A stretch of 53,329 bases of DNA from an uncultured Bacilli bacterium (GCA_947586825.1 CANPXU010000007.1:1-53329); one strand, 5' to 3'. Positions 16,583-41,132 are shown, counted from the first letter of the stretch. Program-made: numbers and translations. The notes: generated from the sequence alone by a model not told the origin.

Positions 16583-18001
16583 ATGACAGAAACATCTAAC
16601 AAGAAAGAAAAAATATTAATTATTGCGGCTGTAGTGATAATGGTTTTATTAGCAGGTATTTTTCTAGTAATTCAATTATCATCAAAGGAATATCTTGTGA
16701 AGTTTAACACAAATGGAGGTAGTCCTATTGAATCAGTCAAAGTAAAAGAAAATCATAAGGTGGAGAAACCTGATGATCCTACAAAGAATGGATATATCTT
16801 TGCGGGTTGGTATTATAATGACAAAGAGTTTGATTTTGACACTAAGATAACTAAAGACATAACTTTAGAGGCTTACTGGTCAGAAAACGGTATAATACTA
16901 AATACTAATAAGATGAGCATTCTTTTGGGAGACGAAAAGAAAGTAGGAATATTATCATTACCTGAGGACGTTAAAATGCAAGATTTAGTATATTCGTCAA
17001 GTGATGAAGAGGTACTAACGGTAGACGCTGAAGGTAATATTAAAACATTAAAAGAAGGTACTGCTACTATAACTATTAAGACTAAAGATGGTAAGCATAC
17101 TGTTAAGTTAGAAATAACAGTTACCAAAGAAGAAGTATACCCTAAAACTATTGCTATATTTGGTTTTGAAACAATGGCAATAGGGGAAACTATAAGACTA
17201 GGAATAACTTATGAACCTGATGATGCAACCAATTTGAATTTTAAATGGACAAGTGATAATACAGCAGTAGCAACTGTTGATCAACTTGGTAATGTTACAG
17301 GCGTAGGAGAAGGAAAAGCGACTATCACTGCTGAAAGTGAAAATGGTTTAACAGCTACTCATTCTATATCAGTATATAAATATGAAGCTCCTAATCAAGG
17401 AGAAACTAAGCCAAATGATAATAAACCTAACCCGACTCCAGGTCCAACTCCGGACCCAACCCCTGAACCGACTCCAGACCCAACACCGGATCCGACTCCA
17501 ACTGAAGTAACAGGTGTTACAATCTCTGGACAAAATGAGGTAAACGTTGGCTCTACAATTATTTTAAGTGCTAGTGTTACACCAGCAAATGCTACTAATA
17601 AAACTTTGACTTGGTCAAGTAACAATACTGGAGTAGCAACTGTTGATCAAAATGGTAGAGTAACAGGCGTAAGTGAAGGAACTGCAACAATAACAGCAAC
17701 AGCAGCAAATGGCAAATCTGTTACCTATGATGTGAAAGTACATTCAGTATATACGATATACATTACAGCTATTCCTCTTGAGGGTGGTTCACTAAATATG
17801 GGCTCAATTCAATATAATTATAAAGTAATGAAGGATGCTAGAGAACTTCTTAAAACAGAGTTTAAAGGCTTTACCTATAATGGTGTTGCAGTTTCAAGTG
17901 CATCATCTACTGTTCCACTTGCCGCTATAGGAGAGAGTAAAACTGCAGAGCTTAAATTAAGTGATAACTCAATTGTTACTGCATCAGTTATAATGCAATA
18001 A
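16583..18001 (+). CDS. Membrane-anchored InlB-repeat/Big_2 surface protein
   Basis: The 472-residue surface protein has an N-terminal membrane anchor (residues 10-32) after a short cytosolic start. Then come an InlB B-repeat (37-99, FNTNGG...FAGWYY...AYW), two Big_2 immunoglobulin-like domains (about 104-183 and 186-267), a Pro-Thr-Asp/Glu linker (281-307), a third Big_2 domain (308-387) and an 85-residue C-terminal domain that I do not recognise. InlB repeats and Big_2 domains are typical spacers in adhesins. GGAAGGAG precedes the start. A folded element and terminator lie upstream. It is followed after 24 bases by the 2040-residue secreted protein, so the two are probably co-expressed. Confidence 0.9.
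   Translation: MTETSNKKEKILIIAAVVIMVLLAGIFLVIQLSSKEYLVKFNTNGGSPIESVKVKENHKVEKPDDPTKNGYIFAGWYYNDKEFDFDTKITKDITLEAYWSENGIILNTNKMSILLGDEKKVGILSLPEDVKMQDLVYSSSDEEVLTVDAEGNIKTLKEGTATITIKTKDGKHTVKLEITVTKEEVYPKTIAIFGFETMAIGETIRLGITYEPDDATNLNFKWTSDNTAVATVDQLGNVTGVGEGKATITAESENGLTATHSISVYKYEAPNQGETKPNDNKPNPTPGPTPDPTPEPTPDPTPDPTPTEVTGVTISGQNEVNVGSTIILSASVTPANATNKTLTWSSNNTGVATVDQNGRVTGVSEGTATITATAANGKSVTYDVKVHSVYTIYITAIPLEGGSLNMGSIQYNYKVMKDARELLKTEFKGFTYNGVAVSSASSTVPLAAIGESKTAELKLSDNSIVTASVIMQ
17423..17503. repeat. Short tandem DNA repeat encoding a Pro-Thr linker
   Basis: This is a degenerate 12-base tandem repeat of the form CC-ACT-CC-GA, encoding repeated PTPD/PTPE units between Big_2 domains two and three. 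The GC content is locally high. Such repeats are prone to slippage and length variation. Confidence 0.75.
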
Positions 18002-18025: not shown

Positions 18026-21000
18026 ATGAGAAAATACGGAAAATTTATCATACTTACTATAGCATTGTTCTTTAGCTCGATGCTTCCATGCTTTGCTAAA
18101 AAAATGACACTTACTGATTTAGAAAAAGAGCTTGAGAATTTGGTGCCAGGAGCAGGATATGTCTATATTGTTGGTGAATATGCATTTACATCTGAATATA
18201 AAATAGAATTATCAGATATTGTCCTTGCCTCTAATAGTATGAATAATGAAGGAAATAAGACAGATAAAACTAAAGTTAATATTTATCAATTAATAAGAAA
18301 ACTTGATGAAGATTATAATCCTGTAGGCCTTGAAAAGGCCGCTAATGCTTTAGGCACAGCAGAATTACCTGAAACTTTTGATATTCGCTATATTGATTAT
18401 AATCATATTGGTGAAACCACACCAACGAATGTTGAATTTAATGTTGATAGTCCTACATATGAAACTTATAAAAATGTTTTAAGTGAAAAATTAGGATTCG
18501 AAACTTCTGAGTTTTATAGTGGAAATTTAACTAATGAAAATGGCAAAATAAAAGGAATTCTTTTAAGAAAAAGTATTGATGATGTTAGCCTTAATGCTGA
18601 TGATAAAGCAAAATATGCTAAAGCTCAATACTTTTTAGCTTATGTAATTGAGGTACCGGGAGCTACAAATAAGACAACGGTTAAAAAAACTGGCCTTGAT
18701 GGAATTCAAACTGCGATTCCTTTGTCAGCTTTTGATGTTCCTGTTGGGACACCTGATAAAACTCCGGGAATTGTTATTTTAACTCCAATTGATTTAGAAA
18801 AAATAAAGGATAATAAAAAAATAATTTATACCATTGATTTAGATGGTGATGAAGATTTATATGGCCCCTATGACTATGTTATTGATTTAAGTGAACTTAC
18901 ATTTCAAACTGATTCAAAGGCTACTATAAATGAGACAAATGCAGATATTATTACAGAAGCTGATAAAAAAGTTTTTACTGATGATTGGGGTTATGATTCG
19001 AGTCTAAATAATAATGTTACTATCAGTAGTCAAGAAAATAATACATATAAAGTAAGTGGCAAATTAGTAGAACAAACTCTTAGAAAGGGTGTTTACGATG
19101 AAGGAGAAGAAACGGGCTATTATTTTGATTTTACTTTTGCTTTAGAAAATAATAAAAGTAAAAAGGCCGTTATTTCTTCTTTAAAGTCTCCGGAAAATAA
19201 CCTTGGAAATATTGAAAAAACTTTTACAACAGAAGAATATGATGAAAATGGTAATTTAACTATTTTAATTAGAATTGATCCTAGTAAAAATTGTGGAGAT
19301 GATGGATCTTGCAAAGCTTATTTTAGTGTTGATTTAGACGGTGATGAAGCTGCATATTTACCAGTTGTTTATACTCTTGATTATAGTGGTGTAACTGAAG
19401 AAAAATCTTCAATATTTACTGTTGCTGAAATGGCTTCAGAAGAAAAAGACAAATTTGGTGATGATGGTTGGTATAATACCACTGATGGATACTCTGTAAC
19501 TGTTAAACAAGATGAAAATGATTCAAAAAAATACTATGTAAGCGGGGTTCTCCCAATTATTGAAGATAGTGATCGGGATGGCGAATCTCAAAAACCCGAC
19601 TTTAATGGTAATGGTAGTTTATTATATTATTTAGGGTTAGGCTTAAAGCTTGCTAATGCTCCCGAAAATTACGGAACAACAGGTGACTCTACGATTAATA
19701 TATTGTTTGAACATGATGCTTTAGCTAAGGAATTTAAAAAGAAGATTGATAGTTCTGATTTCGGAACATCAAAAACCGTATATATTCTAAAAGCTTTAAA
19801 AGCTAGTGGATCTGATGGTAGTGCATTAACTCCTGCTGAAAAATATTTTGAAATTACAGTAGATTTAGATGGTGATGGCACTGAATATGCACCATATACA
19901 GTAACAGTTGATTATGCTGGCTTAATGTTTCAAGATGAGTCTAAAGGCTGTGCTGAAACTGAAAAATTTGACGAAGCTGAACTTGCTTCTCATGAACCTG
20001 AAAAAACAGAACTTAATGGTTATGGTTTTAAATTTGAACCAGTTGCTGATGTAACCATTAATTCTGATGAAATATCTGGAACAATAAAAGAGCAATCTTT
20101 AAATAATGGATTTATGAATAATACTGGTTATTTTGTTCCAGTAAAGATTTCAGTACCAATTGAAGAAGAATGGTTTGCACCATTTAAAGATAAATGGACA
20201 ATTGCTCTTTATGACGAAAATGGTTCAAAGAAAGAGGCTTATAAGCCTAATGAACATGAACAAGAGCAAGGTTGGGTATTGGCCTTATTAAGACTTGATA
20301 GAAATAAAGAAGATAATAAAGTTGTAAAATATGAAATAGACTTTGATGGTGATGGTAAAGCTTTTTTACCATATACTTACGAAATATCATATAAAGATTT
20401 AACATTTAAATCTGAAAATAAAATAAGTTATAATTTCTTTAATGAAGCTACTGGTAAAAATGAAAATAGAGAAGTAGTTACATATGAAGGAGATTTAATA
20501 TCTGATACTATATCATCAGAGTTTGATGATTTTGAATATCATGATTTTACCGGTTGGTATAGAGAAGACTCTGCTACTTTGTTTGATTTTGATAACTCTA
20601 CTACGGGTAAAGATGAAGATTTATCTTTAAAAGCACATTGGACCCTTGATGTCGATAAATTCTTGGAGGACGTTGTTGCTGATTTAGCAGATCCAAAGTC
20701 TACTATATCAAATGATTATACTGATATTTTTGAAGTAACTAAAGCTGACAATGCAATTACATTTAAAGTGCTTGATTATACTACTAAATTAAGTGAACTA
20801 AAGGAAACATCAATTCCGGGAGCTATTGCTTATATATTACAAAGAGGAGAAATAAAAGATATTACGCTTTCTGTCGGAGAAGGTAATGAAGTTAAATTCA
20901 CTAAAGAAGGAGCTAATAATCTAGTAATTTCAAAAACTGCTTTAGATGATGACGGCAAAGCATTAAAGGCAAAGATTCAAGATGGTGCTCAAGCTTTATT

Positions 21001-24000
21001 TGTAAAGGTGCTCGGCGGAGCTGATGCTGAGCAAAACATGACATTAAATGCTATGGCTCTTGCTAAAGAAAATAATAACTTTACTATTTCAATAGGAAAG
21101 TTAGATGATACTGTATCATTAATGAGTGATGCTCCTACTGATTATAAATTTAATTTTACAACTGATGTTGCTGGCGTAACAAGTGAAGAACAACTAAAAA
21201 ATGCTTTAACAAGTGAAAGTGTTTCTCATATTCAAATATTACAAGGATTTACTGTAAAAGATACATGCAATGTGAATAGAGATGTTGTAATAACTGGTAA
21301 ACATGAAGGCGGTAATTACACTCTTACTGCTGATAGTGGTGTAGAAAATATATTTAATGTTAATTCTAGCAATGTAACTATCGAAAATGTTAAATTAAAG
21401 GCTGCTACTAAAGATGCTATAGTCCTTAGTAATGGTTCTCTTACTACAAAAGATGTAACAATAGAATATGCTGATGAAAAAATACCTGAAACTGTAGAAG
21501 CAGGTATTAAAGTTGAGGCAGGAACTCTTACAGCCTCAAATATGACATTTGCAAAAGAACATTATAACACCCCTCTTGTTAAGGCTAAAGACAATGTTAC
21601 TTCCATAAAATTAACGGATAATGGTGGTCTTACAGCAGTTCCTAAAGATAAAGTAGTAATTACACTTAACAAAGAAGGTAGTGATAGTCAAAAGGAAGAA
21701 TCTGATGGATACAAATATTATCATAACGATTCTCATAATGCTAAAATTTATGCTACTGAATTAATAACTCATGAGGGTGGTGCAAGACATCACTTTATAA
21801 AATATAATTATTATAATGAAAATGTAACTCCTATTGATGGTACAAAAGTTAATCAATATGGTACTTTTACTTCTGAGGGCAAACAATTTACAATGTATGG
21901 TTACACAGAAAAAAGTTATCAAATCCTTTATGATAAAGATACAATTGAGGAGAAAGCACCTAGTGATGGGGTAATTAAAAAAGATGATTTAAAAGCCACT
22001 AGTGATAAAGGATATTGGGTTGTTTATGCCGTTGATGAAGCTCCTGGAGCAGCTAGGGTTACAGATAAAGCCTCTTTATTAGCAGCTCTTACTGATTCAA
22101 CAAAAACAAGTATTTACATTCCTGATAAAACTGAAATCGATATGGAAGATGGAGATTTAGAAATTAATAATAACATTTCCATTTATACTAAGAGTTCAAA
22201 TCCTGCTACAATAAAGAATATTGGAAAAATTACAATTAATGCTAATGATGTATCATTTAATAGAATAAATCTTGAAGTTAATGGTGAAAGTACTGAAGGT
22301 AGTGGTCTAATTGAAGTAAAGGGCAAAAAATTCTCTTTCTGGCAAGGTGGATTAAAAAATACAGGAGAAAAAGTAGATTACGCTATTAAGTATACAAATG
22401 ATGAATCTGTTGTTGATATAAGATATATGGGCGCTGGTTCTACTGGTTTTGATGGAACAAACATTACTGAAGCTTATATCTATGTAGAGGGTAAAATTAC
22501 TGATGGTTCAGATTTATATTTAAATAATTTTAAAAATGGTCCAAAAGGAGCTATCATCATAAATGGTTTTGAAGGAGCTAATAAAGAAGATGATATCTAT
22601 GGTATCAGATTCTTAAGTAATACTGTTAGCACAACGGATTACGCTATGATGTTAACAAGTAGTGTATCTGGCCAAACGGGTGATATTCGATTTGGCAAAG
22701 GTAAGATTATAGTTGAATATAATGATAGTAATAAAAATTTTAATGGTATCGACTTATTAGTAGACGATCCAAAGAATGTAACAATAATTTACAAAAATAC
22801 TGAAACATCTGAAACTCAAGACACTGCTCCTGCAGGTGGAAGTGGAATAAAGGTTTCCACTTCTGTCCAAAGTTCTTCGCCAATTGAAACTACTATTAGT
22901 GGATTGTCACAAAATGAAGAAGGAACTTATTCAGGAACACTTACCCAAGATGAAGATGGTAAATTTTATCTGCCACTTGTTATAACATCAAGTCAATTAC
23001 AAGATAGAAAATCTAAAGTTAAAATAACTGATCCTAATGAAAATACTACTGAATATTTATATACAAGCTCTAATGAAAATGGTTATACAACTATTGCAAA
23101 CATTGCTAATAGTTGGCCTTTAAAAGCTATTTCATCTATTCAAGCAATTAGCGAGGCTGCACCTCAAAATAACGGAACGATGAAAATTAATCTTGAGGCC
23201 CTTAAAGCTTCAAAAGCCAAAGAAGGAAAAGTTTATACTATTGCTTTTGATTATGATGGTGATGGATCTTATGATGAACCTCAAACAATTGATTATAGTG
23301 AAGTAAAAACAGAAGAAGAAATTATTCTTGACGCAGCTAAAAATACACAAGATGCCAAGAGCTTAACTGTAACAAAAAATAATAAAATTAATGGTTTAGA
23401 AGAAAATTTCTCTTATCAATATGATACTGAAAAAGATGTAACTTTATATAGAGAGAATAATGAAGATAAAGAATATACTTTTAGGTATAATAAGGTTGAT
23501 ACTACTCATAATGGAGATATAATTATAGCTGTTAGAAAATCCGTTGAAGCAGATACTAATACTTGCAAAAATGACATTTGTATTCCAACAATTAATGGCT
23601 GGGCTTTTGCTAACTTTTTTAAGAAGGTTAGTAGAGGATATCATGAATTCTCATTACTTCAAGATCTTATAAAGAAAGATAATGAAATAGTAGATGCTAT
23701 AAGTAAAGTATCTAAGGTTCAAGATCAAGAACATAAATATGAGGTAACATTAAACCAAAAAAGATTAAATGATTGGTTAAATAATGCATATTTAAGTAGT
23801 GAATATTTTGATCCAGATCAAAAGGATAATAGCACATCTCCTGATGAAGGTAATACTGATGACAATGCTGTTGTACTTGAAGTTGAACTTGATGAAAATG
23901 ACAAGTATATAGTTAGTATAAAAACAAAAGCAAACTTTACTGTAACTTCAAATGAAGGTCAAAAGCATGATGATAACAAGATAGATGTAAAATTTGAAAA

Positions 24001-24148
24001 CCCTAATAATACAACTATTAAAAATGCGTTAGAATTCCTAGGCGAATCTGAAGGCACGCAAGCCACTTTAGATGAAATTAAAGAATTCTATGAGGCTTGT
24101 AAAAAATGGCATACTGTTCAAACAGGAGCTACAATATTCGAAGAATAA
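18026..24148 (+). CDS. Giant secreted repeat protein (2040 residues)
   Basis: The protein begins with a signal peptide (residues 1-24, cleavage near CFA-KK). Four tandem units of about 165 residues each end in a DLDGDG..Y.PY....DY..L.F signature, at about 271, 436, 613 and 772; a fifth, weaker copy lies near 1741. An InlB B-repeat follows at about 799-873. Segments near 1050-1210 and 1345-1600 show the short repeated strands of a right-handed beta-helix (pectate-lyase-like). No LPXTG, lipobox or membrane anchor is seen at the C terminus (ends ATIFEE), so it is secreted or held by another protein. GAAGGAGAAG is the ribosome binding site. Adhesion or glycan binding is likely but not shown. Confidence 0.88.
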   Translation: MRKYGKFIILTIALFFSSMLPCFAKKMTLTDLEKELENLVPGAGYVYIVGEYAFTSEYKIELSDIVLASNSMNNEGNKTDKTKVNIYQLIRKLDEDYNPVGLEKAANALGTAELPETFDIRYIDYNHIGETTPTNVEFNVDSPTYETYKNVLSEKLGFETSEFYSGNLTNENGKIKGILLRKSIDDVSLNADDKAKYAKAQYFLAYVIEVPGATNKTTVKKTGLDGIQTAIPLSAFDVPVGTPDKTPGIVILTPIDLEKIKDNKKIIYTIDLDGDEDLYGPYDYVIDLSELTFQTDSKATINETNADIITEADKKVFTDDWGYDSSLNNNVTISSQENNTYKVSGKLVEQTLRKGVYDEGEETGYYFDFTFALENNKSKKAVISSLKSPENNLGNIEKTFTTEEYDENGNLTILIRIDPSKNCGDDGSCKAYFSVDLDGDEAAYLPVVYTLDYSGVTEEKSSIFTVAEMASEEKDKFGDDGWYNTTDGYSVTVKQDENDSKKYYVSGVLPIIEDSDRDGESQKPDFNGNGSLLYYLGLGLKLANAPENYGTTGDSTINILFEHDALAKEFKKKIDSSDFGTSKTVYILKALKASGSDGSALTPAEKYFEITVDLDGDGTEYAPYTVTVDYAGLMFQDESKGCAETEKFDEAELASHEPEKTELNGYGFKFEPVADVTINSDEISGTIKEQSLNNGFMNNTGYFVPVKISVPIEEEWFAPFKDKWTIALYDENGSKKEAYKPNEHEQEQGWVLALLRLDRNKEDNKVVKYEIDFDGDGKAFLPYTYEISYKDLTFKSENKISYNFFNEATGKNENREVVTYEGDLISDTISSEFDDFEYHDFTGWYREDSATLFDFDNSTTGKDEDLSLKAHWTLDVDKFLEDVVADLADPKSTISNDYTDIFEVTKADNAITFKVLDYTTKLSELKETSIPGAIAYILQRGEIKDITLSVGEGNEVKFTKEGANNLVISKTALDDDGKALKAKIQDGAQALFVKVLGGADAEQNMTLNAMALAKENNNFTISIGKLDDTVSLMSDAPTDYKFNFTTDVAGVTSEEQLKNALTSESVSHIQILQGFTVKDTCNVNRDVVITGKHEGGNYTLTADSGVENIFNVNSSNVTIENVKLKAATKDAIVLSNGSLTTKDVTIEYADEKIPETVEAGIKVEAGTLTASNMTFAKEHYNTPLVKAKDNVTSIKLTDNGGLTAVPKDKVVITLNKEGSDSQKEESDGYKYYHNDSHNAKIYATELITHEGGARHHFIKYNYYNENVTPIDGTKVNQYGTFTSEGKQFTMYGYTEKSYQILYDKDTIEEKAPSDGVIKKDDLKATSDKGYWVVYAVDEAPGAARVTDKASLLAALTDSTKTSIYIPDKTEIDMEDGDLEINNNISIYTKSSNPATIKNIGKITINANDVSFNRINLEVNGESTEGSGLIEVKGKKFSFWQGGLKNTGEKVDYAIKYTNDESVVDIRYMGAGSTGFDGTNITEAYIYVEGKITDGSDLYLNNFKNGPKGAIIINGFEGANKEDDIYGIRFLSNTVSTTDYAMMLTSSVSGQTGDIRFGKGKIIVEYNDSNKNFNGIDLLVDDPKNVTIIYKNTETSETQDTAPAGGSGIKVSTSVQSSSPIETTISGLSQNEEGTYSGTLTQDEDGKFYLPLVITSSQLQDRKSKVKITDPNENTTEYLYTSSNENGYTTIANIANSWPLKAISSIQAISEAAPQNNGTMKINLEALKASKAKEGKVYTIAFDYDGDGSYDEPQTIDYSEVKTEEEIILDAAKNTQDAKSLTVTKNNKINGLEENFSYQYDTEKDVTLYRENNEDKEYTFRYNKVDTTHNGDIIIAVRKSVEADTNTCKNDICIPTINGWAFANFFKKVSRGYHEFSLLQDLIKKDNEIVDAISKVSKVQDQEHKYEVTLNQKRLNDWLNNAYLSSEYFDPDQKDNSTSPDEGNTDDNAVVLEVELDENDKYIVSIKTKANFTVTSNEGQKHDDNKIDVKFENPNNTTIKNALEFLGESEGTQATLDEIKEFYEACKKWHTVQTGATIFEE

Positions 24149-34287: not shown

Positions 34288-34352
34288 GTTGCCTTTTAAT
34301 TGTACTTTAACTAATTTTTTGATAAAATGATAATAGTAGGAGTATGGTAAAT

Positions 34353-37300
34353 ATGAAGCATATTAGATCACTTCTTTTTTGCTTATTAATAGTGATTGTC
34401 ATTTTAATAAATATACCATCTAAAGATGCTTTTCAAAAAGCTGATACTCCTGACTTAAGTAAAACTGCGGAAGCAGGTATATTAAACCCTAAATGGGAAT
34501 ATTACAATAGTTTATCTGATGAAGAAAAAGCTAAATGGCAAGCTGCTCCAGAAAAGTATATTATTCCAAGTGATGGTGCTGGGAGCGATGATTATAGTGT
34601 CAAAATGAAAGCCTATGCTCCAATAGCTTATTCAGCAAGTCTTCCTGCAAAGGTTGATTTAAGAAACTATAATGGTCATAATTATGTGACGGCGGTTGAA
34701 TCACAAGGTGGCCTTGGTATTTGTTGGGCTTTTGCATCTAACGAAGCATTAGAATCAAATATGCTTATGCATTCTAAAGGAACTTTAGATTTTTCCGAAA
34801 GACAACTTGACTATGCGGCTGCGAAAAATACTACTATTTATAAAGAGGGATTTAACCCTTATGCTTCAGCCAATTCTCGAAATATTGGCGAAGGTGGTAC
34901 TTTTAATAGTGCCGCTAGATATATGGCGATGGGACTTGGCGCTGTTAAAATGACTGGCGTATGGTCAACTTGGAATGAAAGCAAAGCGGCAGTCAACATT
35001 AAAGATGCTTTAAGTTTAAATAATACCTCTTATTTAGTAACTGATTATGTAAAATTTCCAGATATTACTAGAAATGCTTCTTCAGTAGATAAAGAAAATT
35101 GGCGTAAGAAAATAAAAACACATCTTATACAAAATGGTGCTGTATATATTTCTACTTTATCTCCTGAAAAATCGGCTGCTAAGGGTTGCTATGTTGATCA
35201 AGCATCTAATGGTATGTCAGGCTTATTAAACTGGAATGAAAGTTGTGAGAGTAGTTTTGCTACATCTACTTATAAAGGCACTCATGCTATGGCCATTATT
35301 GGTTGGGATGATAACTATTCTCTTACTTATTGCTCATATAAAAATGGTGATACAAAAGTCGGTGTTAGCAATTCTAATTGTGTAGCTGATGGTGGCAAAT
35401 ATAATTCTGTAACTGGTGCTTGGATACTTAAAAATTCATGGGGAAGCTTAACACCATATATTTATTTAGCTTATGATTCTGATTATTTAGAGGCAGCAGG
35501 TATCATTAATGTTGTTACCAAAGACTTTGATAATTCATATAGTACTTTTGGCCCTGTAAGTATAACTAATGTTACAGGTCATAAAGTTGAAGCTTTATTT
35601 CAAAAACCAAGACCTACAGAAACTTTAAAAAGAGTATCATTTGAAACTTCTACAACCCAAGATGTAACTTATAATGTTTACTATGGCGATAAAAATACGA
35701 AAAACTTTATAGGTAGTGTAAAAGTAGATACACCTGGAAGATATAGTGTAGAAGCCGGAGATGCTTTATTAACTCAAGAAGACTTTACTATCTATGTTGA
35801 GCCATCTGTTGGTAATGCATATACTCAACCATCAAAAATATATGCTTTTACTAAAAATACTCAAAAAGATCCTAGTGCTACTACTTATTTTGAAATAACA
35901 AGCCCTAAATGGCAAAGCAATGGCACTTATAAATATAATATAAAAACGAGAGTTATAAACTTAGATACTGGTACTAAATTATCTTTTATAGTTAAAGATG
36001 TATATGATAATACAATTGTTAATTATACTGATGATCAATCATATGTAGTCGCAGGAGCTTACGAAGGAGTTGTTGTTTTACCTAGTAAACTTGCTAATAA
36101 CTCAATTTATTATATTGAAACTTATGCTAATGGCAAATTAATTGGTAAAAATTCCTTTGCTACAGGTATATCTTTAAGTAGTGTTAATAAATCAGGAACT
36201 TTATATTATGTCCTTAAAAATGAAGCAGATTTAAAATATATGACTACTTTACAATATAAGTTTAGTAACTTTACTCTTACCAATGATATTACTTTAACAA
36301 GTACTAATTTTGAACCTTTAGGAAGAAATACTGTTGATCAATTCCGAGGAAAACTTGATGGTAGTAATCATGCAATAAATAATTTACAAGTAAATAACTC
36401 TAATGCAGGTTTATTCTTTAAAATTGAAGCCAACATTAGTAATTTAAAAATTAAAAATGTAAATATAACCTCTACCGGTACTTCTTCAGGCGTTCTTGCA
36501 AGTGAGTCAAATCATTCAACTATTAAAAATGTTTTAACTGAAGGTATGATGAATTCAACGAGCACTACGGGTTACATTGGTGGAATCGTAGGGTATGCTG
36601 AAAATACGGATTTTATAAATGTTGTCAATGAAACTAGTTTAGTAGGAGGAAAGCCTGGCGCCATTACAGGATATTTTGGAAGTTATTCAACGATAACTAA
36701 TGCATTAAACCAAGGATTAATTTCCCAAAATAATTCTGTAGCCTCAACATTTTTCTATACACTTGCTTTAAAGAGTAATACACTAGAAAATTTAGTTGAT
36801 TTAGCTATTGAAAATGATGCTAAGTGTGGAACCCCTATTAGTTATTCAAGCAGTCAATTAACTGTTAAAAATGTAGTGTATCCAAGAGAAGATAAATGTA
36901 GTTATATTGGTACTGCTGTTGATAAAAATAACTTAAAATCGGCTTCTACATACTCGAGTTTCGGTTATGATTGGTCAACAAGTAATGGGTTACCATATAT
37001 TAAAGAAAATCCTGTAATTTATATTACTAGCTTTACACCAATAGGTGCCAAAAATCTGTTTGTAGGTGTAAACTCTGTGATGGAAATTAGCCCAACCCCT
37101 TCAAATGCAACCTATAAAGGTGTAACATTAAAGAGTAACAATGAAAATATTGTAAAAGTAGTAAATGGTAATCAATTGCAAGGTGTATCTACTGGTAAAG
37201 CAACTGTTTCTGTTACTACGGCTGATGGAACATATATAACTAAAGAAGCAACAGTTTACGTTTTAGATGATACATTGAAGCAAAGATTTAGTGATGGCTA

Positions 37301-37649
37301 TTTATTTATCCCTGAAAATTCTACACCAAGCAGTTTAAGTAATGGTCAGTATACTGTTACCGCTTCCAAGAATGATATTGGAACGGGAACAAACCTTACT
37401 TATAAACTTGGTAGTCAGGTAGTAGGTTCTTTTGTAGCAGTAGTAAAAGGCGATTTAAATGGTAATGGTAAAGTCCAAGCTGATGATATATTACTGATGA
37501 AAAGGCACATATTAAAACTGGATAATGCAAATCCCCTTAGTGCCGCTCAAATAAAGGCAGGGGATATAACAGGCTCAGGTATATCAGCTATTGGCATATT
37601 AAAAATGCAAAGACATATTTTAAGACTAGATGGAGGAGGTGAACTTTAA
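34353..37649 (+). CDS. Secreted papain-like cysteine protease with C-terminal dockerin-like module
   Basis: The protein of about 1098 residues has a signal sequence (1-23) and a short pro-region. A C1A papain-like domain (about 98-390) has oxyanion Gln118, nucleophile Cys124 (GICWAF), His311 (THAMAIIGW) and Asn361 (KNSWG). Next are beta-rich segments, GLUG-like repeats (about 700-830), a Big_2-like domain (about 925-1005) and a dockerin-like end (1032-1098). The first dockerin repeat (GDLNGNGKV...D..LMKRHIL) keeps Ca-type positions; the second (GDITGSG...LKMQRHIL) is one residue shorter and lacks the last Asp. ATG at 34353 is preferred over 34344, which lies only two bases after AGGAG. The gene overlaps the cohesin gene by one base. 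Confidence 0.93.
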   Translation: MKHIRSLLFCLLIVIVILINIPSKDAFQKADTPDLSKTAEAGILNPKWEYYNSLSDEEKAKWQAAPEKYIIPSDGAGSDDYSVKMKAYAPIAYSASLPAKVDLRNYNGHNYVTAVESQGGLGICWAFASNEALESNMLMHSKGTLDFSERQLDYAAAKNTTIYKEGFNPYASANSRNIGEGGTFNSAARYMAMGLGAVKMTGVWSTWNESKAAVNIKDALSLNNTSYLVTDYVKFPDITRNASSVDKENWRKKIKTHLIQNGAVYISTLSPEKSAAKGCYVDQASNGMSGLLNWNESCESSFATSTYKGTHAMAIIGWDDNYSLTYCSYKNGDTKVGVSNSNCVADGGKYNSVTGAWILKNSWGSLTPYIYLAYDSDYLEAAGIINVVTKDFDNSYSTFGPVSITNVTGHKVEALFQKPRPTETLKRVSFETSTTQDVTYNVYYGDKNTKNFIGSVKVDTPGRYSVEAGDALLTQEDFTIYVEPSVGNAYTQPSKIYAFTKNTQKDPSATTYFEITSPKWQSNGTYKYNIKTRVINLDTGTKLSFIVKDVYDNTIVNYTDDQSYVVAGAYEGVVVLPSKLANNSIYYIETYANGKLIGKNSFATGISLSSVNKSGTLYYVLKNEADLKYMTTLQYKFSNFTLTNDITLTSTNFEPLGRNTVDQFRGKLDGSNHAINNLQVNNSNAGLFFKIEANISNLKIKNVNITSTGTSSGVLASESNHSTIKNVLTEGMMNSTSTTGYIGGIVGYAENTDFINVVNETSLVGGKPGAITGYFGSYSTITNALNQGLISQNNSVASTFFYTLALKSNTLENLVDLAIENDAKCGTPISYSSSQLTVKNVVYPREDKCSYIGTAVDKNNLKSASTYSSFGYDWSTSNGLPYIKENPVIYITSFTPIGAKNLFVGVNSVMEISPTPSNATYKGVTLKSNNENIVKVVNGNQLQGVSTGKATVSVTTADGTYITKEATVYVLDDTLKQRFSDGYLFIPENSTPSSLSNGQYTVTASKNDIGTGTNLTYKLGSQVVGSFVAVVKGDLNGNGKVQADDILLMKRHILKLDNANPLSAAQIKAGDITGSGISAIGILKMQRHILRLDGGGEL

Positions 37650-40117
37650 TGAGAAAATTTATAAAAAGTGCTGCAATAATTGCTATTATAAGCATTCTTA
37701 TAAGTATTCCTTTTTTTGCTAAAGCTGCTGGAACTGTCAGCTATTCCATAAGTTCATCTAGCGCTAGTGTCTATCCTGGGTCAACCTTTACGGTATCTGT
37801 TTATATATCTGGTGCTAACGCTCGTCTAGCTAGTAATACAATTACGATAAATTATGATACTAGTAAGTTCCAATACGTATCTTATAGTGTACCTGCGCCT
37901 GCTACAAGTGCAGATGTAATGGTTAATACAATGAGTGGTAGTGTAATTTATTTATATACCGATAGTAAAGGTGGAATGAATCCTTTAAATAATGGTGTTG
38001 TAGCAACCTTTACTTTTAAAGCTTTAAGTAGCTATGGTGCCGGCAATATTAGTTTTGTTGCTGAAGGTGCTGCTGATCAAAATGCGAGTAGCTATAATAT
38101 AAGCAAGGCAACAGGATCTACTAGTGTTAATATAGTATCTCCTCCTGTAATAAGTTCTAATAATTATTTAAGTTCAATAACAGTTGCTGGCGGTTCTCTT
38201 TCTCCAGCATTTAATCGAAATACAACTTCATATAGTATTGTAGTAGATGCTGCCGATACAACCATTAATGCTACAGCAGAAGATGGTACAGCAACTATTC
38301 AAGGAACAGGTTATACAGCCTTAAATTTTGGTTTAAATACTTTCTATGTAACTTGTACGGCTGCAAATGGTACATCTAGGACATATATATTAAATATTAC
38401 AAGACCTGTAAAAGGTTCTACGAATACATCATTATATTCTTTATCTGTTAGTAATACTTCTATTTCCTATAACGGAGGTTATACCTATTCAGCAACGGTA
38501 GATAATTCAGTAAAAAAAGTTAAAATTGATGCTAGAGCTGTTGATAGTAAAACTTCTCTTAAAGGAACTGGAATTCAGTATTTAAGCGTTGGTGAAAATA
38601 ATTTTGTGGTAACTGCTATATCAGAAAGTGGTATAACAGCCTCATATAATATTGTCATTACTAGAAAGAGTAAAGGATTTGGGGGTAATAAAGACCCTGA
38701 ACCAGAAAAGGATCCTGAAAAGGAAGAAAATAAATCTGATAGTAATCTATTAAAGAGTTTAGAGGTTACAGGAGCAACATTTAAATTTAATAAAGATCGT
38801 TTTGATTATTATTTAACTGTTCCATATACACAAGAAACACTAGAAATTAATTATGAAGCTGAAAGCGAAAGTGCGATTGTTAGAGTTAATGCTGAAAGTA
38901 CTTTAAAAGTTGGAAGCAATGTTGCTATCATCGAGGTTGAAGCTGAAAATGGTGATGTTAAAACATATCAAATTGTCATAACAAGAAATGATGAAGTAGC
39001 AATTACTGAATATACTCCTGAGGCGATAATTGCTGCGCTTGATAATCAACTTGAAGTAGTAGTCGCTGTTGATGCAAATTCTGATAGTATGCTTCTTGAT
39101 GAGTCCATACTTACTAAACTAAAAGAGACTAAAAAGCTACTTACAATTAAGATTTTAGATGAATTTGGTAATATCCAAGAAGTAATAATTATAAATGGCG
39201 CAGATATAACTGATACTTCAACATTATCTTTAGATTTAATACGTAATATTACTGATAAAAAATTACTTCAATCATTAGATTCTAGTTATATAAGTGTTAA
39301 TACTAAGGGATCTAATATCCCTGATAATACAATATTTAGACATTATATTGATTCTATTAAAGATAAATTTATCTTATATTATATTGAAAAAGGCGATGTA
39401 GCTACCCAAAAATTGGAAATCAAAAATGGCTATGTTGAGTTTACTTTAAATAATAATGCTAATTATGCTATCGTTAAAATGCCTGCAGAAGCCAAAGATC
39501 CAGTCGTTGAAAAACCAGAAGAAAAGCCGGTCAAAATTGAAGATGATGGTATAGGTTTTGGTAAGTGGATTATATTTGGTAGTGGTACTATTGCTTTGGC
39601 AGGAAGTGCTGCTGGAGTAGCATATATCATTAGAAAGAAGAAAAGTATTATTGATGGTGCCGAAGTTGAATATCTTGACTTAGAACCTGAAAACAATGCA
39701 GTTGCTGCTCCTGCTGTAGATAATAGTGCTGTCGATACTATTCCAGCAATGGATACACTTGATATTGACGTTGAGACATTATCTTCTGAACCAGCAGTAG
39801 AGATGTTAGCAATTCCTGATCCTTCGATTACTCCTAAAGATGAAACAACAGGTGCTAAAGAAAACTACCATTATGAATGGCAAAAGGAATATTTTACCAA
39901 AAAGGAAAAAGAGGATAAAATTAAGGCAGATCTTAATGAGTTATTAGATCCTAAATATGAAATAAAACCTATCTTAAGTGCTGAAGCAATTGCGGATACT
40001 TTTGTAGATGTCAAAATTGATTTTGATTTTGAACCTATCGATAATAGTGTATCAGTAACGGCTGAAGAAAGTGTTGAATCTTTAGAAAATAGCACTATAG
40101 AAGTAAATCAAAACTAG
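37649..40117 (+). CDS. Membrane-anchored cohesin-domain scaffold protein
   Basis: The 822-residue protein has a signal peptide (1-26), a cohesin-like domain (about 28-164: PGSTFTVSVYISGA, ITINYDTSKFQYVSY, GVVATFTFKA), three cadherin-like beta-sandwich domains (about 173-252, 260-340, 367-447) with a charged Pro/Glu/Lys linker at 341-365, a further domain (450-625), a membrane helix (640-662), and a 160-residue acidic cytosolic tail. It would display a cohesin outside. It starts on the last base of the dockerin-protease stop codon after a very strong GGAGGAGG ribosome binding site, so the two are coupled. Cohesins bind dockerins, so the neighbour is the obvious partner. The long inner tail is unusual for a scaffoldin. 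Confidence 0.9.
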   Translation: MRKFIKSAAIIAIISILISIPFFAKAAGTVSYSISSSSASVYPGSTFTVSVYISGANARLASNTITINYDTSKFQYVSYSVPAPATSADVMVNTMSGSVIYLYTDSKGGMNPLNNGVVATFTFKALSSYGAGNISFVAEGAADQNASSYNISKATGSTSVNIVSPPVISSNNYLSSITVAGGSLSPAFNRNTTSYSIVVDAADTTINATAEDGTATIQGTGYTALNFGLNTFYVTCTAANGTSRTYILNITRPVKGSTNTSLYSLSVSNTSISYNGGYTYSATVDNSVKKVKIDARAVDSKTSLKGTGIQYLSVGENNFVVTAISESGITASYNIVITRKSKGFGGNKDPEPEKDPEKEENKSDSNLLKSLEVTGATFKFNKDRFDYYLTVPYTQETLEINYEAESESAIVRVNAESTLKVGSNVAIIEVEAENGDVKTYQIVITRNDEVAITEYTPEAIIAALDNQLEVVVAVDANSDSMLLDESILTKLKETKKLLTIKILDEFGNIQEVIIINGADITDTSTLSLDLIRNITDKKLLQSLDSSYISVNTKGSNIPDNTIFRHYIDSIKDKFILYYIEKGDVATQKLEIKNGYVEFTLNNNANYAIVKMPAEAKDPVVEKPEEKPVKIEDDGIGFGKWIIFGSGTIALAGSAAGVAYIIRKKKSIIDGAEVEYLDLEPENNAVAAPAVDNSAVDTIPAMDTLDIDVETLSSEPAVEMLAIPDPSITPKDETTGAKENYHYEWQKEYFTKKEKEDKIKADLNELLDPKYEIKPILSAEAIADTFVDVKIDFDFEPIDNSVSVTAEESVESLENSTIEVNQN

Positions 40118-40175: not shown

Positions 40176-41132
40176 ATGAAAAAGATATTATTGTTATTAA
40201 CTATTTTATTTTGGCCTAGTACTACTTTAGCGTACTCTCATTTCATTATTCCTGGAGGGCAAAGTATTGGTGTTGAAGTAGATACCAAGGGAGTAATGGT
40301 TATAGGCTTTTATAAAATCGATAATGAATATAATAAATCAGATTTACAAATTGGTGACTATATTATTAAAATAAATGATAATGAGGTATCCAGTTTGGAA
40401 GATTTAACAAATAGTATTGAAAAATACTCAAGCGATGGAAAAGTTAAAATGACATATATAAGAGATAATAAAGAATATACTTGTGATTTTAAGATTATAA
40501 ATTCTGAAGGAAAATATAAAACTGGTTTATATGTTAAAGATGGTATAAAAGGTATAGGAACTTTATCTTATATAGATCCTCAGACTAATATTTATGGTGC
40601 TTTAGGTCATGAAATTATCGAAGGTAATACAAGTATTAAGGTAAATATATCAGATGGTTATATTTTCCCTAGTTACATAACCGGAATTGAAAAAAGCTCA
40701 CCAGGCAAGGCAGGAAGCAAAATAGCTACGTTTGATTATGAGATTCGCTATGGCGATATAATTAAAAATACTGATTATGGTATATTTGGTGTCTACGATA
40801 ATCCTAAAGGAGAAGTAATGGAAGTAGGTACTCCTAAAATAGGAGAAGCCTATATTAGAACCGTATTAAAAAATGATAAAGTAGAAGAGTATTCTATAGA
40901 GATAACTAAGATAAATGATACTTCTAAAACTAAAAATATAACATTTAAAATAAATAGTAATGAATTACTTGAAAAAACCGGTGGGGTAGTTCAAGGTATG
41001 AGTGGATCACCTATAATCCAAAATAATAAAATCGTTGGTGTATTAACTCATGTTATCGTTGATAACCCTTCAACTGGATATGGAATATTTATAACTAAGA
41101 TGCTTGAAGAAGGCGATAAAAGTAAGAATTAA
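40176..41132 (+). CDS. spoIVB: SpoIVB-like S55-family serine protease with PDZ domain
   Basis: SpoIVB is a secreted signalling protease that activates SpoIVFB during sporulation in Bacillus. The 318-residue protein has a signal sequence (1-19), a PDZ domain (about 30-105, LQIGDYIIKIN) and an S55 domain with His145 (GALGHEI) and Ser276 (QGMSGSP), plus the GVLTHVIVDNPSTGYG strand. As I recall, B. subtilis uses His236, Asp363 and Ser378; the position 15 residues before the Ser is Ser261 here, not Asp. Activity may be altered. It follows the cohesin gene after 58 bases. No other core sporulation gene is in the window, so a role outside sporulation is possible. Confidence 0.85.
   Translation: MKKILLLLTILFWPSTTLAYSHFIIPGGQSIGVEVDTKGVMVIGFYKIDNEYNKSDLQIGDYIIKINDNEVSSLEDLTNSIEKYSSDGKVKMTYIRDNKEYTCDFKIINSEGKYKTGLYVKDGIKGIGTLSYIDPQTNIYGALGHEIIEGNTSIKVNISDGYIFPSYITGIEKSSPGKAGSKIATFDYEIRYGDIIKNTDYGIFGVYDNPKGEVMEVGTPKIGEAYIRTVLKNDKVEEYSIEITKINDTSKTKNITFKINSNELLEKTGGVVQGMSGSPIIQNNKIVGVLTHVIVDNPSTGYGIFITKMLEEGDKSKN

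What the first reader, a model, noticed from the sequence alone, without database searches (positions are those of the whole stretch)
34353..40117. Coupled dockerin-tailed protease and cohesin-displaying membrane anchor
A papain-like protease (Gln118/Cys124/His311/Asn361) ends in a dockerin-like pair of repeats. The next gene, sharing one base with its stop codon, begins with a cohesin-like domain on a three-cadherin-like stalk with a membrane anchor. Established knowledge: cohesins bind dockerins. Inference: the cell secretes the protease and then docks it on its own surface, a one-enzyme cellulosome-like system aimed at proteins rather than glycans. The 160-residue cytosolic tail of the scaffold is unexpected for such an anchor and could signal binding.
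Basis: partly seen in the sequence, partly recalled or inferred. Interest (0 to 1): 0.85.

Follow-up and report, generated by a model that had tools for sequence, protein, structure and literature searches.

The report
Private docking pairs tether surface enzymes
A tiny uncultured gut-type bacterium secretes a protein-cutting enzyme with a molecular plug and, from the very next gene, makes a membrane protein with the matching socket; the same plug-and-socket gene pairing recurs across its relatives, mostly on a cell-wall-cutting enzyme, so cohesin-dockerin docking here looks like a routine way to fix single enzymes to the cell rather than a cellulose-digesting machine.

Summary
ORF 34344-37649 is a C1 (papain) protease with all four catalytic residues and a C-terminal type I dockerin. 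ORF 37649-40117 starts on the last base of its stop codon and encodes signal peptide, cohesin, three cadherin-like domains, a membrane helix and a 161-residue tail. The cohesin is supported by Pfam on the isolated domain and by an AlphaFold model whose best PDB matches are almost all cohesins.

It is one case of a wider pattern. The same genome has a second pair: a dockerin-tailed SagB/Atl-like peptidoglycan glucosaminidase followed by its own cohesin anchor. That pair recurs across the bacterial family (anchor in 100 of 145 genomes) and reaches Lachnospiraceae and other Clostridia. Papain-dockerin-plus-anchor pairs occur in at least ten genera.

Over 137 glucosaminidase pairs, the dockerin co-varies with the neighbour's cohesin (partial r 0.55), not with the rest of the anchor. 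The ten top co-varying dockerin positions are 10, 11, 13, 17 and 18 of both repeats; four of those five are published specificity positions.

Best reading: private, one-to-one, gene-pair-encoded docking of secreted enzymes to the membrane, not a cellulosome. Binding of the window pair itself is inferred; its dockerin has lost the second calcium loop. Docking geometry was not resolved.

The parts
34344..37649 (+). C1 (papain-like) protease with C-terminal dockerin, 1101 aa; likely start 34353
34641..35444 (+). Peptidase_C1 domain, residues 100-367; Gln121, Cys127, His314, Asn364
   Evidence: Pfam PF00112 E 5.6e-8; residues located
36336..36545 (+). Peptidase_M26_N match, residues 665-734
   Evidence: Pfam PF05342 E 4.1e-8
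37446..37619 (+). Type I dockerin, residues 1035-1092; first Ca loop intact, second degenerate
   Evidence: Pfam PF00404 36-37 bits; sequence comparison
37649..40117 (+). Cohesin-bearing membrane anchor, 822 aa, start codon overlapping the protease stop codon by one base
37751..38134 (+). Cohesin domain, residues 35-162
   Evidence: Pfam PF00963 50-51 bits; AlphaFold plus Foldseek to cohesins
38168..38986 (+). Stalk of three Cadherin-like domains, about residues 174-446
   Evidence: Pfam PF12733, three stretches, E 4.4e-19; first copy located
39566..39631 (+). Membrane helix, about residues 640-661 (WIIFGSGTIALAGSAAGVAYII then RKKK)
   Evidence: read from the sequence; borderline hydropathy, below the threshold used
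39632..40114 (+). Cytosolic tail, 161 residues, with the stretch KADLNELLDPKYEIKPILSAEAIADTFVDVKIDFDFEP that is nearly the same in congener G007

Best explanation
The two genes are a self-contained docking couple. The protease is secreted and its C-terminal dockerin binds the cohesin at the tip of the membrane protein encoded by the next, translationally coupled gene, so the protease is held on a cadherin-like stalk at the outside of the cell's own membrane. The pair is one of several private, gene-pair-encoded docking couples in this bacterial family; the widespread one tethers a SagB/Atl-like peptidoglycan glucosaminidase. Shown here: domains, catalytic residues, cohesin fold (modelled), gene pairing across many genera, a membrane-helix rather than sortase-type end in the glucosaminidase anchors, and dockerin-cohesin covariation in the glucosaminidase pairs. 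Inferred: physical binding in the window pair, its one-to-one specificity, and the biological substrate of the protease.
For: Dockerin and cohesin HMM matches and cohesin fold. Same-genus relatives G007 and G254 keep both genes; synteny (xseA upstream, S55 peptidase downstream) was checked in G007. Papain-dockerin plus anchor pairs in ten further genomes of other genera: G044, G032, G115, G157, G245, G198, G012, G156, G192, G178. 49 tandem pairs by Pfam alone in 46 genomes; 88 of 91 dockerin loci examined have a complete downstream ORF of this kind; all 82 glucosaminidase ORFs in the named relatives have the anchor next door, 80 of them with a dockerin. Covariation: dockerin vs cohesin partial r 0.55 over 137 pairs, against -0.09 for dockerin vs cadherin and 0.03 for GH73 vs cohesin; 0.54 after stricter thinning and 0.47 within the main cohesin cluster. 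The ten dockerin positions with most excess mutual information to the cohesin are 10, 11, 13, 17, 18 of both repeats; positions 10, 11, 17, 18, 22 are published specificity determinants (PMC5748583). C-terminal membrane helix in 154 of 157 glucosaminidase anchors, LPXTG in none.
Against: No direct binding evidence for the window pair. Second calcium loop of its dockerin is degenerate. Among 16 non-redundant non-glucosaminidase pairs the dockerin-cohesin correlation is weak and not significant (r 0.13, p 0.14); the r 0.67 came from close orthologues. Profile matching ranked the window's cognate cohesin third of 21 (a congener's cohesin ranked first), with mean rank over all pairs near chance (9.1 vs 11). 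AlphaFold of a stop-read-through dockerin-cohesin chain from a relative folded both domains (pLDDT 92.9) but did not fix their docking (pTM 0.59).
Confidence: 0.8

Rival explanations
1. The anchor is a shared dock: its cohesin also takes the glucosaminidase and the M60-like peptidase, making a small mixed-enzyme complex like a mini-cellulosome.
For: Three dockerin-type proteins and two cohesins in an incomplete genome (82%); one relative, G044, has three dockerin ORFs in tandem before one anchor.
Against: Each cohesin anchor sits behind its own dockerin gene; the two dockerins of this genome differ strongly (distance 0.76, cohesins 0.81) including at specificity positions; within most dockerins the two repeats match each other far better than foreign repeats (76.8 vs 31.6); the M60 dockerin is weak and below the Pfam cut-off in the whole-protein scan.
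Confidence: 0.1
2. The docking function is lost: the dockerin is degenerate and the anchor's cohesin binds something else or serves only as an adhesin tip.
For: Second calcium loop lost; C. perfringens cohesin-like modules and cohesin-fold domains in other proteins appear among the fold matches.
Against: Both genes and their one-base overlap are kept in three species; the first calcium loop and the helix residues of both repeats remain; the cohesin is the best Pfam-scoring one in the family sample.
Confidence: 0.07
3. The cohesin and dockerin act between cells, holding neighbours or captured foreign enzymes.
For: Both partners are predicted to face outward.
Against: Tight gene pairing and, in the sister pairs, within-genome covariation point to partners made by one cell.
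Confidence: 0.03

Closest known systems
Cellulosome (Acetivibrio thermocellus, Ruminococcus flavefaciens)
   Same: Type I dockerin on a secreted enzyme, cohesin on a surface protein; dockerin-bearing peptidases, serpins and a subtilisin-like protease are known there (PMC3573020)
   Different: Single-cohesin membrane protein encoded next to one enzyme, no multi-cohesin scaffold, no cellulose-binding module found, no polysaccharidase cargo in the pair
Clostridium perfringens cohesin-dockerin toxin and glycosidase complexes
   Same: Non-cellulosomal; best structural matches of the relatives' cohesin model are C. perfringens cohesins 2w1n, 2jh2, 2vo8
   Different: There the cohesin and dockerin sit on different secreted enzymes (from memory and PMC12997984); here the cohesin is on a dedicated membrane anchor
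Limousia mucinolysome (PMC12997984)
   Same: Gut Bacillota, dockerin-bearing peptidases
   Different: Multi-scaffoldin system for mucin with a sortase-type anchor (cSca5); the pairs here are single-cohesin and membrane-helix anchored
S. aureus SagB-SpdC (for the sister pair)
   Same: GH73 glucosaminidase held at the membrane by a partner protein (PMC12272431); best PDB profile match of the dockerin enzymes is 6u0o_B, E 4.6e-34, which I take from memory to be SagB
   Different: SpdC is an unrelated multi-pass membrane protein; here the link would be dockerin-cohesin

Membership tests
Papain-like protease (C1) | C1 fold and Gln/Cys/His/Asn catalytic set | tested here: met
   PF00112 E 5.6e-8; Q121, C127, H314, N364
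Type I dockerin | Two tandem loop-helix repeats at the protein end | tested here: met
   PF00404 31-37 bits, cut-off 22.9
Type I dockerin | Calcium-coordinating residues 1, 3, 5, 9, 12 in both loops | tested here: not met
   Repeat 1 largely kept (D, N, N, Q, D); repeat 2 has one deletion and T, S, S, G at 3, 5, 9, 12; loop likewise degenerate in G007 and G254
Type I dockerin | Binds a cohesin | not testable with these tools
   Needs binding assay or multimer prediction
Cohesin | Cohesin sequence profile | tested here: met
   PF00963 51 bits on the isolated domain, cut-off 24.1; not listed in the full-length scan
Cohesin | Nine-stranded cohesin beta-sandwich | tested here: met
   Model with nine strands; the best 35 Foldseek matches are cohesins or cohesin-containing scaffoldins and complexes, TM about 0.6-0.7
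Cellulosome | Scaffoldin with several cohesins | tested here: not met
   One cohesin per anchor; only two cohesins found in the genome
Cellulosome | Many dockerin-bearing polysaccharidases | tested here: not met
   Three dockerin-type proteins: C1 protease, GH73 glucosaminidase, M60 peptidase; genome 82% complete
Sortase-anchored scaffoldin | LPXTG-type sorting signal | tested here: not met
   None in the last 60 residues of 157 glucosaminidase-pair anchors; none seen by eye in the window anchor, which ends in a membrane helix plus cytosolic tail

The most novel reading that the evidence does not exclude
Cohesin-dockerin is, in a large group of small-genome Bacilli and in part of the Clostridia, a housekeeping cell-envelope module: gene-pair-encoded, mutually specific plug-and-socket couples that fix single secreted enzymes to the membrane, above all a SagB-like peptidoglycan hydrolase, with proteases as a repeated second use.
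Probability: 0.65. Interest if true: 0.85.

Novelty: new variant of a known kind. Interest (0 to 1): 0.75.

Why it matters
Genomes with both cohesins and dockerins are read as carrying cellulosome-like complexes (4333 human gut MAGs in PMC12997984). If single-pair systems like these are common, part of that count is enzyme tethering instead, largely of a cell-wall hydrolase. The pairs also give well over a hundred natural, co-varying cohesin-dockerin couples for learning specificity rules, and suggest a dockable form of membrane-held glucosaminidase, a job that SagB-SpdC does in S. aureus. Four literature searches for dockerin or cohesin together with glucosaminidase, peptidoglycan-hydrolase, GH73 or RF39 terms found no description of it in the open-access library (of the hits only a few were opened); subscription papers were not searched.

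Tried and rejected
Sortase replacement: rejected, sortases in 129 of 145 family genomes and five in this one. Fusion fold as a stand-in for a complex: both domains fold, docking unresolved. Non-glucosaminidase covariation: r 0.67 fell to 0.13, p 0.14, after removing close orthologues, so it is not used. Profile matching of cognate pairs: close to chance overall. The full alignments A1 and A2 were too diverse for the genome-contig scan; a nine-sequence subset worked. Third dockerin (M60-like peptidase on C24): weak, internal, and no cohesin neighbour matched. The literature searches are partial: the library lacks most subscription papers.

Full report
What was claimed and what is there. The two ORFs at 34344-37649 and 37649-40117 are as described. 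The first is a C1 protease with its catalytic set and a C-terminal type I dockerin. The second has a signal peptide, a cohesin, three cadherin-like domains, a further uncharacterised region, a membrane helix and a 161-residue tail. Its cohesin scores 51 bits on the isolated domain and 50.3 bits in the six-frame search, though the full-length scan did not list it. An AlphaFold model of the domain (pLDDT 76, pTM 0.75) matches cohesins in nearly all of its best PDB hits. The stop and start codons share one base behind a strong ribosome-binding sequence, so the genes are probably translationally coupled.

A second pair in the same genome. On contig 1 a dockerin-tailed protein with SH3 and cadherin-like domains is followed by a second cohesin anchor. 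Relatives of that enzyme form alignment A1, whose profile matches SagB- and Atl-type GH73 glucosaminidases in the PDB (6u0o_B, E 4.6e-34; Autolysin E). Most A1 members miss the Pfam glucosaminidase model (2 of 73 hit), so the GH73 call rests on the PDB profile match.

The pattern in the family. In 145 family genomes, Pfam finds dockerins in 109 and cohesins in 73. Of these, 49 dockerin-cohesin gene pairs in 46 genomes have the cohesin 90-158 nt downstream on the same strand. I then fetched 91 dockerin loci, 47 Pfam-paired and 44 not, the latter chosen with ORF lengths of 450-800 aa. 88 have a complete downstream ORF of anchor type; L050 runs into a contig end, and L119 and L124 have none. A profile of the anchors finds one in 100 of 145 genomes at E 1e-30 or better, and in other families of the class. 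A named scan gave 80 relatives labelled Bacilli, Tenericutes, Erysipelotrichaceae, Candidatus Onthousia, Lachnospiraceae and other Clostridia. All 82 glucosaminidase ORFs in them are followed by an anchor-type ORF, and 80 carry a dockerin. That scan was ranked with a dockerin-containing query, so it favours such genes. Pfam calls the cohesin in only 14 of 80 anchors, but a model of one such anchor domain, in a read-through chain from L162, matches C. perfringens and other cohesins. A shorter N-terminal domain in another part of the family remains of uncertain fold.

Papain pairs elsewhere. The window protease matches 19 of 291 family genomes. In one search a papain-dockerin ORF followed by an anchor was found in G007 and G254 (same genus as the window) and in G044, G032, G115, G157, G245, G198, G012, G156, G192 and G178. 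In G044 three dockerin-ended ORFs in tandem, all with papain-type matches, precede one anchor.

Evidence that the partners bind. Over 137 thinned glucosaminidase pairs, dockerin distances track cohesin distances (r 0.61; partial r 0.55 after removing the catalytic domain and the rest of the anchor). The dockerin-cadherin and GH73-cohesin partial values are -0.09 and 0.03. The result survives stricter thinning (0.54, n 110) and holds within the two largest cohesin clusters (0.47 and 0.40), but not in the third, small one (0.10, n 14). The dockerin positions with the most excess mutual information to the cohesin are 10, 11, 13, 17 and 18 in both repeats; the cadherin and the rest of the anchor show no such enrichment. 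Positions 10, 11, 17, 18 and 22 are published dockerin specificity determinants (PMC5748583). Position 13 is not on that list. The two repeats of a dockerin resemble each other far more than repeats of other dockerins, consistent with two equivalent binding faces that change together.

Limits for the window pair itself. The covariation is in the glucosaminidase pairs. In 16 non-redundant pairs with other cargo it is not significant. The window dockerin has lost its second calcium loop, as have its two congeners, so it may bind in one orientation only. No interface was predicted.

How it most likely works. The protease is secreted and held by its dockerin on the cohesin of the neighbouring membrane protein. 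In the glucosaminidase pairs, 154 of 157 anchors have a C-terminal membrane helix and none an LPXTG signal, although the family has sortases. The enzymes of those pairs mostly have only an N-terminal hydrophobic stretch, so without the anchor they would be expected to leave the cell. What the protease cuts is unknown. The M26_N match is only a domain resemblance.

Known or new. Cohesin-dockerin binding, dockerin-bearing proteases and surface anchors with a single cohesin are known separately. A private, gene-pair-encoded docking of single enzymes to the membrane, conserved across a family and mostly serving a peptidoglycan hydrolase, was not found in the papers searched.

Noticed in passing
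L096-L105 and similar loci (anchors without a Pfam cohesin hit): Anchors with a shorter N-terminal domain (GKFSVTSSNxSVLSGG type) are paired with very canonical dockerins; whether this is a reduced cohesin or another fold was not tested.
   Followed up: partly
G126:C10, G010:C8, G131:C4, G083:C6, G029:C27 (L142 for G126): Giant ORFs of roughly 2,870-2,920 aa carry a cohesin and a dockerin in one chain.
   Followed up: no
L263, L262, L259, L260: Other dockerin genes precede their own anchors: large Big_2 or cadherin-repeat proteins, and one with leucine-rich-like repeats.
   Followed up: partly
window 40176-41132: S55/SpoIVB-like peptidase with a PDZ domain directly downstream of the pair, kept in congener G007.
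   Followed up: no
window 18026-24148 and 16583-18001: A 2040-aa protein with only a weak pectate-lyase-like adhesive domain match, next to a 472-aa protein with three Big_2 domains.
   Followed up: no
L007 907-6084 (-): M60-like peptidase with fn3 and F5/8 domains and a weak internal dockerin; no cohesin-type gene matched beside it.
   Followed up: partly
L206, L219: Two Lachnospiraceae glucosaminidases lack the dockerin but are still followed by an anchor-type gene.
   Followed up: no
window 39632-40114: The anchor's cytosolic tail holds a stretch nearly identical in congener G007, KADLxxLLDPKYEIxPILSAEAIAD, of unknown role.
   Followed up: no
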